Positions 53,624 to 57,747 of a DNA stretch of 64,000 nt are shown in pieces. Positions within the stretch are counted from its first letter, which is position 1; every line of letters begins with the position of its first letter. The translations under genes and the position numbers were made by a program. The notes beneath the pieces are model-generated. The model did not search any database and was not told where the DNA came from. It worked only from the letters and a program-made list of their open reading frames with translations. Origin of the DNA: Methanospirillum hungatei (GTDB lineage: Archaea > Halobacteriota > Methanomicrobia > Methanomicrobiales > Methanospirillaceae); assembly GCF_019263745.1 (NCBI RefSeq), contig NZ_CP077107.1, forward strand, positions 1,550,001 to 1,614,000. Direction: 5' to 3'.

Positions 53624-53782
53624 TTAGGTTTCTGTCTTTTCAGGTAATCGGCAATTATTACAGAGAATGCAGCCAATCCAAGAGCATTCCTGTATCATGG
53701 GGATTGTGACAGTACTAATAATAAATGAATCACCCAGATATACATCAGCATAGATGTCCCTGGTAATGAGAATGTCATTCAT
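53624..53782 (-). CDS. Possible small protein overlapping the STAS gene end
   Basis: A 52-residue frame begins at an ATG that overlaps the preceding stop by 8 bases, so it could be coupled. MNDILITRDIYADVYLGDSF reads protein-like. After about residue 28 a neighbouring frame gives a better tail (NALGLAAFSVIIADYLKRQK, a membrane helix with a charged end), which suggests a frameshift or chance. Low support. Confidence 0.3.
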   Translation of the reverse strand: MNDILITRDIYADVYLGDSFIISTVTIPMIQECSWIGCILCNNCRLPEKTET

Positions 53783-55073
53783 CAGTTTCAATCTCCGAGA
53801 TGTACGCTATTGCCCCATGAATGGTGCGAAGTCGTGAATCATCCATAAGATGCCGCATGTCCAGAAACTCCCCGTTATTCATGAGATGCCGTATCTTCGA
53901 TCCGATATCAGGTTCGGGAGAGAGTAGGGATTTTTTAAAAACCACTCCATGAGTATGCAGTGATATCTCCGAAAGCCCTCTGTTTGCCGGATGGATATAT
54001 GATAGAGCAGAGAGTTGTTCAGGCTGAAATTCTGACAGATCATGGGTGAGGTCTATGCCGATCCCAAAAGCGATGATGCTCTCTCCTGCATACTCAAATG
54101 AATCTGACACCTCAATCCATTCATCCACATTGCCGGGGTCCATGATTGAACCCCCGTTCATTGGGGCTCTCTCTGGAACCGGCGGATGAGTGATCCCTGA
54201 GCTTCTGACACCTCCCGACTCTCCGATAAGTGCAATCGCGATTATTCCTGAATAATCCGGCCTCATCTTCCTGGCATGGCCAAAGATCCTCTTATAGACC
54301 TGACTGAGGGAGATCCCATCTGGTGTGTCTGATGTAAGTGTCAGAGTTTCCTGGAAATGGCCCCTGAGTGCGGCATTAAATCCAGTATAAATCCTGACTT
54401 CCCCGGTATCGGTAATAGGAATAAAAAAATCCGGGGTTTTATTCCCATCGGTCGGGAGCCAGACAATGGATCCCTGCAAGGTTATCATCTCACCGAGCAA
54501 TTCTCGTGCCATTTCGGGACTTTCAGCCATGGCACCAAGTCCAATGGAGTATTCACAATCCGAAAATCGAACCAGTCGTACCTTGTCCGGACTGATTTGT
54601 GCATACAAAACCCGTGAAAGACTTCCAGTCAGGTGAAGGGTAGCTTTTTCAGTGCAAACGGTCTGGATCTCAATACTCCCTCCATCTATGGTATACTGCA
54701 CGGTATCAGGATCATGCTGTTTTTCTGCACAGACATCATGAATGATTGAAAGAACCGTGCGGGCATCAGGTTCTGTCTGGAATATTTTATGCATCCCGGC
54801 CATCTGGAGGACATTCATGATAAAAGGAGATACATTGCTGAGGAAGACCTTTCCGTCCCTTGGTGCGACCTGTTTTCGTGCCATCACCATCACCCGGAGG
54901 CCGGCACTACTAAGGTATGGAACATCAGTGAGATCAAACAAGACAAACCGGATGGTATCCGTCATGCCTGCCGCCAGTGCATCCTGTAACAGTCCTGATC
55001 CATGACCGTCCAACCTGCCTTTCGGTGCTAATATAAGGGTATGTTCAATGATCGTGGTCCTGATATCCATCAC
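53775..55073 (-). CDS. STAS-domain protein with uncharacterised C-terminal region
   Basis: This encodes 432 residues. An N-terminal STAS (anti-anti-sigma type) domain covers about 1-110: APKGRLDGHG and LTDVPYLSSAGLRVMVMARK, with the serine in the usual phosphorylation place. The remaining 320 residues are not recognised; they include a beta-rich segment with IEIQTVCTEKATLHLTGS and EYSIGLGAM. STAS proteins of this kind pair with PP2C phosphatases and kinases in partner-switching circuits; such genes are elsewhere in the window (1-3360, 34941). A methionine doublet makes the start uncertain by one codon. Confidence 0.75.
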   Translation of the reverse strand: MMDIRTTIIEHTLILAPKGRLDGHGSGLLQDALAAGMTDTIRFVLFDLTDVPYLSSAGLRVMVMARKQVAPRDGKVFLSNVSPFIMNVLQMAGMHKIFQTEPDARTVLSIIHDVCAEKQHDPDTVQYTIDGGSIEIQTVCTEKATLHLTGSLSRVLYAQISPDKVRLVRFSDCEYSIGLGAMAESPEMARELLGEMITLQGSIVWLPTDGNKTPDFFIPITDTGEVRIYTGFNAALRGHFQETLTLTSDTPDGISLSQVYKRIFGHARKMRPDYSGIIAIALIGESGGVRSSGITHPPVPERAPMNGGSIMDPGNVDEWIEVSDSFEYAGESIIAFGIGIDLTHDLSEFQPEQLSALSYIHPANRGLSEISLHTHGVVFKKSLLSPEPDIGSKIRHLMNNGEFLDMRHLMDDSRLRTIHGAIAYISEIETDE

Positions 55074-55142: not shown

Positions 55143-57344
55143 TCACACGTGGATAGGTGCCTGGATTCCTGATTGCGTCCCACCAGGCTCTTTTACTGGG
55201 ACATGTACATGTTTGCCATCCCACTCAGAGAACTGGTGCAGGCATACGGTCAGGTCTCGGGTGAAGGCAAAATACCCAATCTGGGTGCTCCGGCAGAGTT
55301 TCATAGCCATGTCCATGAGGCCACGGGGATCAGGGCGAGCCTCTCCAAGCCAGATATGGAAGATATTACCACCGTCCACAATCGGAAAGAAGACATGTTC
55401 TATCTCTGCACGGCGTGCAAGGGTGATGTCTGCACCAGGAGCGACATGGGTGCCGTTCGTATAGTAGATCGGAAGGTCACGAGTATCGCCAAGACGGGAT
55501 AAAGCAACTTCAAGATTACCCTTGATAACCTGCTTTGCCCCTTCGTGAAACTCCCTGCGGAGGAGATCAGCAACGGCAAATCGCTGACCGGTTGTTTCTG
55601 CAGGAGTCCGTGCAAGGGCGATAGTCATCCCGTGCTTTCTGGTAAGCTCCTGGCTGTAGAGTTCCATCTCGGTCATTGCTAGAACCCCGAGGCGGAACGC
55701 GTCATCTGACTCATGGAGTTGATGACCGGTGAAGTGCTGGACCAATTCATTCAGGCCGACAATTCCTATGGTATAGACAAGCCCGTCAAAGTCAACCGCC
55801 ATAGCACCTCGCTCACTGGTCTTCGGATCACGTGGTCGCTGCATGGCAAAAGGCATCCGGTTACTCTTTTTGATATGTTCCATCCACCGGAGTTTTATCT
55901 TAAAAACCTCAACGGCGGTATCCATCATAGACCGAAGTTCAGCAAAGAGCCGCTCCTCATCGCCATGTGCCTTGTAGGAGGCCCGGGGACAGTTGAGTGA
56001 GACGACACCCCAGGATCCCATGGAAAAGTGCATCCCATCCTCGAAATAGAGTTTTTTATCAAAGTCCGCGTCCTGATCCGCCATAGTTGAGAACTGGTAA
56101 GCACAACACTGATAGCATGAAATCCCCTCCCCGGCACCACGATATGCCGGAAGCTGATTATCATAGTAGGGTGTCCCGAATTTTGAAGCAAGTTCGAAGG
56201 TCAGAAGATAGAGATCTTCATAGGTCGGGAGATCTGGGTGAGCCTTATTGAACTCTTCATCTTCATGCATGAAATCCGGTTCGATGCTAATCTCCGGTTT
56301 AGGGAAATTAAAGGGTTTTCCCCAGTAGTCTCCGACAAGCATGACCTCCATGAGTGCTTTAAAGAGCAGCCTGACTTCACGCTCACATGCTCCATACGTC
56401 TGGAGCGGGGCTTCTTTTCCATTCCAGACCTTTCCCTTATATACACAGGGCTTATCTTTCCACAACTTTGGAACCCCTGGAGAGAGTTGAACAGACGAGA
56501 AGACGAGTTGTCCACCACGGGCGACCATCATCTGGGTCATCTCATAGACAAACATCTGCATCAGCTGTTTCATCTCTTCATAGGGCATATTTGCAAAGTA
56601 TGGCGCCAGAAAGGTAAGGAAATTATAGTACCCCTGACCGCCGGCAAAGTTAGTCTGGGCACTTCCAAGTGCTTTTACTGCGTGAAGTACGGCAACCTCC
56701 GCCCGGTTTGCAGGCCCGGCAACCGATGCCTTGGTACCATTTCCGTCAGGCATGAGTCCATAATAGAAGAAATACCGGAGATCCCAATCCTGACAGAATG
56801 GTCTGGTTCCGAAATACTCAAGATCATGGATATGAATATCTCCGCACAGGTGCCGGTCAGCAAGGTGTGGAGGAAGTTGTAGGAGATACTGTTCCTTGCT
56901 AATCTTGTCTGCCTTCTTTTTATGGGATGTTTCTGCATTCTCCTGTAGGTTTGCATTATCCTTTGCTTCAAATCCCCTGCCGACATCTATCTGATGAGCG
57001 TCATAAACAGGAGTCCCTACCCTCGTGCAGACATTCCGCCACTGAATCCTCCCCCGCTCGATCAGGATGATATTCATGATCTCCCTGATCAAGGGGCCGG
57101 ACAAGGTGCGCAAGTTAAGTTTTTTGATACGATCTTCAACTTCCCTGGCTATTTCCTGTGCAGTTTCCTCGTCGGCTCCATCAAATCCATAAAAAATTTC
57201 AACGAGCCTTGTCTCTTTCAGGATCTGTTTTACTATCCGGTCCCGGTCCCACTCCAGGATATGCCCGTCACTGGTCCTGACCGGTGGCATTGACGGAATT
57301 GCTATGCCGTCAAGTGTAGTCTGGCGTGTAATCCCTGCCACCAC
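55143..57344 (-). CDS. nrdD: Anaerobic ribonucleoside-triphosphate reductase, class III, C-terminally truncated
   Basis: This encodes 733 residues. An ATP-cone occupies about 20-110 (VRTSDGHILEWDRDRIVKQI). The catalytic domain has HIHDLEYF, GGQGYYNFL, VSLNCPRASY with the active-site cysteine, and IGYFAFTRDLTVC. Class III reductases normally end with a four-cysteine zinc site and RxxGY, the glycyl-radical motif. Here the protein stops about 30 residues after that last cysteine (ending GGTQSGIQAPIHV) with neither element; no other frame restores them. The nrdH gene lies 5 bases upstream. The activase nrdG is not in the window. Confidence 0.88.
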   Translation of the reverse strand: MVAGITRQTTLDGIAIPSMPPVRTSDGHILEWDRDRIVKQILKETRLVEIFYGFDGADEETAQEIAREVEDRIKKLNLRTLSGPLIREIMNIILIERGRIQWRNVCTRVGTPVYDAHQIDVGRGFEAKDNANLQENAETSHKKKADKISKEQYLLQLPPHLADRHLCGDIHIHDLEYFGTRPFCQDWDLRYFFYYGLMPDGNGTKASVAGPANRAEVAVLHAVKALGSAQTNFAGGQGYYNFLTFLAPYFANMPYEEMKQLMQMFVYEMTQMMVARGGQLVFSSVQLSPGVPKLWKDKPCVYKGKVWNGKEAPLQTYGACEREVRLLFKALMEVMLVGDYWGKPFNFPKPEISIEPDFMHEDEEFNKAHPDLPTYEDLYLLTFELASKFGTPYYDNQLPAYRGAGEGISCYQCCAYQFSTMADQDADFDKKLYFEDGMHFSMGSWGVVSLNCPRASYKAHGDEERLFAELRSMMDTAVEVFKIKLRWMEHIKKSNRMPFAMQRPRDPKTSERGAMAVDFDGLVYTIGIVGLNELVQHFTGHQLHESDDAFRLGVLAMTEMELYSQELTRKHGMTIALARTPAETTGQRFAVADLLRREFHEGAKQVIKGNLEVALSRLGDTRDLPIYYTNGTHVAPGADITLARRAEIEHVFFPIVDGGNIFHIWLGEARPDPRGLMDMAMKLCRSTQIGYFAFTRDLTVCLHQFSEWDGKHVHVPVKEPGGTQSGIQAPIHV

Positions 57345-57349
57345 ATCAC

Positions 57350-57604
57350 CTAGCAGAGCTGCAATATTTGATCTTCATTCACGGAATCGCCGCTAAAAAG
57401 TTCCTTAGAGGTCAGAAACTTTTTCCCGACCTGAAGGACAGGGGCCTCCTGGACAAAGACACCATTCACGCGGAGCTCAGTGAGTGCTTTTGCAGACGAC
57501 ATGTCTGCAACCGTGAAAGGAATCTGGTGAGATGTAAGAAAATCCTTGAGAATTTCACAACGCGGACAAAACTCAAGTGTATATACGATAAAGACCGCCC
57601 CCAT
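57350..57604 (-). CDS. nrdH: NrdH-like glutaredoxin
   Basis: This encodes 84 residues of a thioredoxin-fold redoxin. The active-site CPRC lies near residue 13, followed by a DFLTSHQIPFTVADMS strand and VQEAPVLQVGKK, the cis-proline segment. It reduces ribonucleotide reductase; some class III enzymes use such a redoxin instead of formate. It precedes nrdD by 5 bases. The ATG at 57604 is preferred over a GTG at 57613. Confidence 0.85.
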   Translation of the reverse strand: MGAVFIVYTLEFCPRCEILKDFLTSHQIPFTVADMSSAKALTELRVNGVFVQEAPVLQVGKKFLTSKELFSGDSVNEDQILQLC

Positions 57605-57747
57605 AAATATCACATAATGGTATGTCTTTGCATATTGAATAAGGATTTGAGATTATGAACTTCGGCATATAAGGATTCACATACTACAGAGGATAGCATG
57701 AGATCCAAACTCCCTTATCTCATAAGATAAAGACATAATATCGCAGA

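What the first reader, a model, noticed from the sequence alone, without database searches (positions are those of the whole stretch)
55143..57344. NrdD lacks zinc site and glycyl-radical motif
The class III reductase stops soon after the strand that normally leads into CxxC and RxxGY. Without the glycyl radical it cannot be catalytic by the known mechanism, yet the rest, including the active-site cysteine, is intact and nrdH is coupled. Either the missing part is encoded elsewhere, another gene is the active copy, or the radical sits on a separate protein.
Basis: partly seen in the sequence, partly recalled or inferred. Interest (0 to 1): 0.57.

Follow-up and report, generated by a model that had tools for sequence, protein, structure and literature searches.

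The report
Ribonucleotide reductase with detached radical subunit
In Methanospirillum and nearly all of its order, the oxygen-free enzyme that makes DNA building blocks comes as two separate proteins, with the part that stores the essential radical encoded by a small gene far away on the chromosome.

Summary
In detail: the 733-aa NrdD (55143-57344, minus) ends at the strand before the zinc site. It has no RxxGY, and no frame downstream restores one. It is neither a sequencing error nor decay. The genome holds exactly one more NRDD match: a 120-aa protein at G000:C1:1381712-1382071, about 223 kb away, made of an N-terminal zinc-ribbon-like extension, a CxxC-x4-CxxC site and SRVTGYLQDVSGWNAGKQQELKDRQRY. 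This is the missing glycyl-radical domain as a free-standing protein. Of 150 genomes of the order, 118 have both parts, 3 drafts only the body, 5 drafts only the small protein, and 24 neither (the 23 listed all one genus, which uses class II RNR). The small gene follows dys-pyrF in 38 of 38 loci. The window genome has no class I or II RNR, so this split class III enzyme must be its only one. Outside the order NrdD is continuous, but 12 of 80 examined genomes also carry a related stand-alone glycyl-radical protein beside a complete NrdD. That suggests a YfiD-like 'spare part' that became an obligatory subunit. Activity and complex formation are inferred, not shown. I found no description in the searches made.

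The parts
55143..57344 (-). nrdD body: class III RNR catalytic chain without its own zinc/glycyl-radical domain (733 aa)
   Evidence: PF13597 1-514/562, E 1.4e-132; single copy in genome; dN/dS 0.02-0.05 in the five of six comparisons that could be computed
57051..57281 (-). ATP-cone-like N-terminal domain (residues 22-98)
   Evidence: PF03477 E 0.00042, 21.2 bits, below the curated cut-off of 25.8
56793..56795 (-). barrel cysteine C184 (GTRPFCQDW); role as reducing Cys by analogy (recalled)
   Evidence: invariant in 43 of 43 rows; an intein sits exactly here in L216 and L217
56103..56117 (-). finger-loop cysteines C410, C413, C414 (CYQCC), expected thiyl-radical site
   Evidence: invariant in 43 of 43 rows
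55146..55238 (-). non-conserved C-terminal tail (residues 703-733) where continuous NrdDs carry CxxC...RVTGY
   Evidence: mean top-residue frequency 0.54 against 0.83-0.94 over residues 101-695; pLDDT below 50 from residue 698
55242..55244 (-). C701, at the position of the first zinc cysteine of continuous NrdDs; most often Ser in split relatives
   Evidence: Ser in 69% of 36 split rows, Cys in 7 of 7 continuous rows
57350..57613 (-). nrdH-like glutaredoxin/redoxin (87 aa, CPRC), immediately upstream of nrdD
   Evidence: TIGR02196 E 6.2e-07, TIGR02194 E 0.00034; PF00462 E 0.00012, 22.7 bits against a cut-off of 22.9; coordinates

Best explanation
This is a two-protein class III ribonucleotide reductase. 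The large chain (window nrdD) supplies the ATP-cone-like domain, the barrel, the substrate site and the finger-loop cysteine. A separate 120-aa protein (L125 ORF 1489-1851, minus; G000:C1:1381712-1382071), which I will call the detached glycyl-radical subunit, supplies the zinc knuckle and the radical glycine, Gly95 of RVTGY. Proposed cycle: the small protein docks where the C-terminal domain normally lies; NrdG (G000:C1:2909410-2910141) removes a hydrogen from Gly95 using SAM; the glycyl radical makes the thiyl radical on C413/C414; NTP is reduced with electrons delivered through NrdH. Oxygen would then cleave only a cheap, replaceable 13-kDa part. Shown here: gene anatomy, homology, conservation, co-occurrence, synteny, and absence of any other RNR in this genome. 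Inferred: docking, the site of the radical, activation by this NrdG, and activity.
For: Only two PF13597 matches in the genome: positions 1-514 (NrdD) and 503-562 (the small protein, E 2.5e-13). The small protein's residues 77-115 align to residues 697-736 of the P. copri NrdD chain 8p23_A across its RITGY loop, E 7e-06; the radical glycine of that enzyme is Gly711 (PMC11226230, passages). Co-occurrence in 150 order genomes: both 118, body only 3, small only 5, neither 24, read by me from the tables; Fisher p 8e-20, ignoring phylogeny. In Methanospirillum, 10 of 12 genomes have both parts and 2 drafts (67% and 75% complete) have neither; 8 of 12 lack PF02867, among them the single-contig G000 and G459, and 6 of those 8 have both parts. 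NrdG-like protein in 31 of 35 genomes given; the 4 misses are in the genus without NrdD. The body is 68-71% identical to continuous Methanothrix/Methanosalsum NrdD, whose C-terminus is CxxC-x10-CxxC in the seven Methanothrix/Methanotrichaceae loci, then R[VI]TGY. Strong purifying selection on both genes. The small gene lies behind deoxyhypusine synthase and pyrF in 38 of 38 loci.
Against: No biochemical evidence. The two genes and nrdG lie at three distant places in this genome, so there is no operon linking them. Three NrdD-bearing genomes (G038 71%, G086 93%, G139 84% complete) show no small protein, and five drafts have the small protein without the body. The AlphaFold models had shallow alignments (mean pLDDT 71.5 and 66.2) and could not test docking: the radical domain of the continuous control was itself below pLDDT 50.
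Confidence: 0.9

Rival explanations
1. The small protein is only a spare part (as YfiD is for pyruvate formate-lyase) that repairs an otherwise complete NrdD.
For: Stand-alone relatives coexist with a complete NrdD in 12 of 80 phylum genomes given; YfiD/Y06I are the validated precedent and spare parts for other glycyl radical enzymes were proposed (PMC8683613, passages).
Against: No complete NrdD exists in the window genome. In the order, every listed body match that reaches the C-terminal end stops at model positions 500-524, apart from one extra full-length NrdD of another type in G001. With nothing complete to repair, the part must be obligatory here.
Confidence: 0.03
2. The short NrdD is a relic or a non-catalytic regulator, and dNTPs come from another RNR or from salvage.
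For: Class II RNR was found in 22 of 22 other order genomes tested (12 of the NrdD-less genus, 10 others).
Against: The window genome and 7 more of 12 Methanospirillum genomes have no PF02867 match. dN/dS is 0.02-0.05 with active-site residues invariant. The radical-domain protein is retained beside it.
Confidence: 0.03
3. The two halves are rejoined into one chain by protein or RNA trans-splicing.
For: Inteins do occur in NrdD of some members of the order, so splicing elements have entered this gene.
Against: The NrdD tail is about 30 variable residues, too short for a split-intein half (recalled). No intein match to the window NrdD or the small protein in Pfam. The small protein has its own conserved N-terminal extension.
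Confidence: 0.02
4. A sequencing or assembly error removed the C-terminal domain.
For: None found.
Against: Same end in 102 of 102 readable Methanomicrobiales loci from many independent assemblies; no zinc/RxxGY coding remnant in any frame downstream.
Confidence: 0.005

Closest known systems
Continuous class III RNR of Methanothrix/Methanosalsum and of the NrdD3-type enzyme of Methanosarcina barkeri (the latter recalled)
   Same: Body 68-71% identical to the Methanothrix/Methanosalsum rows; CYQCC finger loop; nrdH upstream in L104 and L179; zinc + RVTGY sequence nearly the same as in the detached protein
   Different: There the zinc/glycyl domain is on the same chain, and in L179 and L180 a NrdG-like ORF directly follows nrdD (by inspection).
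YfiD/GrcA and T4 Y06I, autonomous glycyl radical cofactors of pyruvate formate-lyase
   Different: Belongs to the NRDD family with a zinc site, with no Pfam match to a PFL-type Gly_radical domain at E<=1. Obligatory in Methanomicrobiales because no complete large chain exists; YfiD repairs only oxygen-cleaved enzyme (PMC8683613, passages).
Class I RNR (NrdA + NrdB)
   Same: Radical stored on a separate subunit from the catalytic chain
   Different: NrdB is a ferritin-like metalloprotein needing oxygen chemistry; here the subunit is a detached glycyl-radical domain. Analogy only.
nrdD genes of phages broken by introns, inteins or homing endonucleases
   Same: nrdD in pieces
   Different: Phage pieces are adjacent and usually rejoined or interrupted mid-barrel (PMC3653736 and PMC12363816, passages). 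Here the break is exactly at the radical-domain boundary, the piece is about 223 kb away and has its own extension.

Membership tests
Class III ribonucleotide reductase (NrdD) | NRDD catalytic barrel | tested here: met
   PF13597 443.6 bits, TIGR02487 470.5 bits against a cut-off of 326.35; Foldseek best hits are all class III RNRs, model pLDDT 71.5
Class III ribonucleotide reductase (NrdD) | Finger-loop cysteine | tested here: met
   SCYQCCAYQF invariant in 43 rows
Class III ribonucleotide reductase (NrdD) | Zinc site and radical glycine (RxxGY) on the same chain | tested here: not met
   Absent from the chain; present on a separate protein
Class III ribonucleotide reductase (NrdD) | Cognate activase NrdG in the genome | tested here: met
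   TIGR02495 147.1 bits against a cut-off of 131.15, G000:C1:2909566-2910129; specificity for the small protein untested
Class III ribonucleotide reductase (NrdD) | Glycyl radical and NTP reduction | not testable with these tools
   Needs EPR and enzyme assay
NrdD3 subtype | Double cysteine finger loop without the formate-type Met and without the active-site Glu | tested here: inconclusive
   QCCA: double Cys, no Met before it; Glu position not mapped. Definition from PMC9669993 and PMC4493059 passages
Autonomous glycyl radical cofactor (GrcA/YfiD) | PFL-type glycyl-radical domain | tested here: not met
   Small protein matches NRDD, DZR and weak zinc ribbons; no Gly_radical match at E<=1
Autonomous glycyl radical cofactor (GrcA/YfiD) | Coexists with a complete host enzyme it repairs | tested here: not met
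   No complete NrdD in this genome; the condition is met in 12 genomes outside the order
Split intein system | Intein halves on the two pieces | tested here: not met
   No intein domain in either protein

The most novel reading that the evidence does not exclude
A repair 'spare part' became an enzyme subunit. An ancestral archaeon had a complete NrdD plus a free-standing glycyl-radical domain that rescued oxygen-cut enzyme, a stage still seen in some Methanosarcinales-side genomes. In the ancestor of Methanomicrobiales the large chain then lost its own radical domain and became permanently dependent on the detached one, giving an RNR whose radical carrier is a swappable, sacrificial subunit. 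The stand-alone proteins in relatives would be the first spare parts known for a ribonucleotide reductase.
Probability: 0.5. Interest if true: 0.78.

Novelty: new variant of a known kind. Interest (0 to 1): 0.68.

Why it matters
Class III RNRs, like the glycyl radical enzymes named in the papers read here, are described as carrying the radical on their own C-terminus; the validated exceptions there are repair proteins for pyruvate formate-lyase. Here a whole order of methanogens appears to run its anaerobic RNR, in several Methanospirillum genomes the sole source of dNTPs, with the radical on a separate small protein. It makes three questions testable: whether a glycyl-radical domain can be exchanged freely in normal catalysis, whether spare parts exist for enzymes other than pyruvate formate-lyase (an open suggestion in PMC8683613), and whether such a part can turn into an obligatory subunit. 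It also warns that annotators who look only at NrdD would call this enzyme dead.

Tried and rejected
Rejected: frameshift or sequencing error; second complete NrdD; class I/II RNR in this genome; intein or trans-splicing. AlphaFold of the window NrdD and of a continuous Methanotrichaceae NrdD (L110) gave models of mean pLDDT 71.5 and 66.2. The radical domain of the continuous control was below pLDDT 50, so docking could not be judged. The radical-domain tree has only 45 columns: stand-alone versus continuous separates with support 90/92, not decisive, and long branches are flagged. Paper searches found no description of a detached NrdD radical domain. The library holds only open-licence papers, so the M. 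barkeri NrdD3 paper (recalled) was not read, and a mention there or in RNRdb cannot be excluded.

Counts to note: the co-occurrence table was read by hand. Five genomes whose only PF13597 match is at small-protein strength (G056, G099, G131, G145, G148) were not counted as having the body. Six weak small-protein matches (G024, G070, G074, G114, G126, G134, E 6.6e-5 to 6.5e-4, in 371-1147-aa frames) were not counted as the small protein. 23 of the 24 genomes with neither part are listed as genus g24; one is unlisted.

Full report
Observation. The ORF at 55143-57344 (minus, GTG start, 733 aa) is a class III ribonucleotide reductase chain. It matches PF13597 from 1 to 514 of 562 and TIGR02487 from 1 to 531 of 581. 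It stops after ...GYFAFTRDLTVCLHQF plus about 28 residues, with no zinc CxxC pairs and no RxxGY, and none is coded downstream in any frame. The finger-loop cysteines and barrel cysteine are intact and invariant. An nrdH-like gene ends 5 bases upstream. The close relatives are Methanospirillum: L032, titled M. hungatei isolate M59, is 97% identical.

The missing part. The genome (one contig, 3.39 Mb, 99.3% complete) has one NrdD body and exactly two PF13597 matches. The second, positions 503-562, E 2.5e-13, lies in a 120-aa ORF about 223 kb away (L125 1489-1851, minus). It has a Cys-rich N-terminal extension (KCHTC...CPVC, CPLDNCDCSH), then CPLCGEPVCPEC and SRVTGYLQDVSGWNAGKQQELKDRQRY. It aligns to the radical loop of P. 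copri NrdD, whose radical glycine is Gly711 (PMC11226230, passages). So Gly95 of the small protein is the expected radical site. Inference: the radical is on this protein.

It is the rule in the order. Of 150 genomes of the order, 118 have both parts, 3 drafts only the body, 5 drafts only the small protein, and 24 neither. The 23 of those 24 that are listed are all genus g24. Twelve g24 genomes were tested for class II RNR and all had it, and four tested for NrdG had none. All 102 readable Methanomicrobiales C-termini lack RxxGY, while the 8 loci from Methanothrix, other Methanotrichaceae and Methanosalsum are continuous. Residues 101-702 of the split chains are well conserved and the tail after residue 702 is not. 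At the position of the first zinc cysteine, 69% of 36 split rows now have Ser. The small gene stands behind deoxyhypusine synthase and pyrF, same strand, in 38 of 38 order loci examined, and before a CbiZ gene in 35 of 38.

It must work here. The window genome has no PF02867 match, and neither have 7 more of the 12 Methanospirillum genomes. The control rang in 11 of 14 known genomes and in 22 of 22 order relatives. Ten of the 12 Methanospirillum genomes carry both halves and two incomplete ones carry neither; 6 of the 8 without class I/II have both. dN/dS of nrdD against five close relatives is 0.02-0.05; a sixth comparison was saturated. For the small gene against G149 dN is 0.067 and dS 1.74. 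An RNR is needed for de novo dNTPs (established knowledge), so the split enzyme is very probably active. A NrdG-type activase is present.

Where it came from. Outside the order the RVTGY domain sits in 750-840-aa NrdD frames. But 12 of the 80 genomes given to one search also hold a stand-alone protein of 88-194 aa frames; by the tables each also has a second match in a longer NrdD frame, one of them (G431, 208 aa) cut. One copy, G203, has lost its conserved end. Stand-alone forms share a compact CxxC-x4-CxxC zinc site (39 of 39 order loci, one genome in twice; 24 of 24 other loci, being 12 genomes fetched twice), against CxxC-x10-CxxC in the 9 continuous ones that the pattern caught. The 45-column tree puts the stand-alone forms on one side of a branch, support 90/92, and residues 39-117 are alignable. 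This fits one origin as a spare part followed by loss of the large chain's own domain. Transfer between lineages, or convergence on a short zinc loop, is not excluded.

Mechanism. Best supported: NrdG installs a glycyl radical on the small protein, probably when docked on NrdD. The radical passes to C413/C414, and NrdH supplies electrons, as reported for the M. barkeri enzyme (recalled; not read). Only the genetics and sequence steps are shown. Comparison with YfiD: the logic is the same (a small protein completes a large chain), but the family differs (NRDD with zinc, no PFL-type domain) and the dependence is obligatory. The authors of PMC8683613 wrote that only YfiD/Y06I were validated and that spare parts for other glycyl radical enzymes may exist (passages).

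Novelty. In ten paper searches and the passages read from the papers opened I saw no mention of a detached NrdD radical domain. Phage nrdD genes broken by introns or inteins are known but are a different thing. I rate it a new variant of a known kind.

Noticed in passing
L216 (G004:C1:371500-377500) and L217 (G057:C2:71000-76500): NrdD of some Methanomicrobiales carries inteins exactly at the active-site cysteines: GTRPF|C in both, and also CYQC|CAYQF in L216 (Pfam Intein_splicing and LAGLIDADG_3). Other order genomes show 1161-2008-aa NrdD frames.
   Followed up: partly
G001:C1:590703-592373 (L218): One genome of the order has, besides the split enzyme, a complete 569-aa NrdD of a different type ending in RRVSGY.
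   Followed up: no
genus g24 of family f6 (G024, G030, G042 and others): This genus lacks NrdD and the small protein (and NrdG in the four tested); it has class II RNR in 12 of 12 tested.
   Followed up: partly
L175 (G203:C1:2319500-2324500): A stand-alone glycyl-radical protein whose conserved end after GW is replaced by an unrelated tail, probably a decaying spare part.
   Followed up: no
L125 1489-2542: The small gene is fixed behind pyrF (OMP decarboxylase) across the order, an association with pyrimidine nucleotide synthesis.
   Followed up: partly
window 53775-55073 (-): STAS-domain protein of 432 aa directly downstream of nrdD; only the first about 100 residues match STAS, the rest has no Pfam match.
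   Followed up: no
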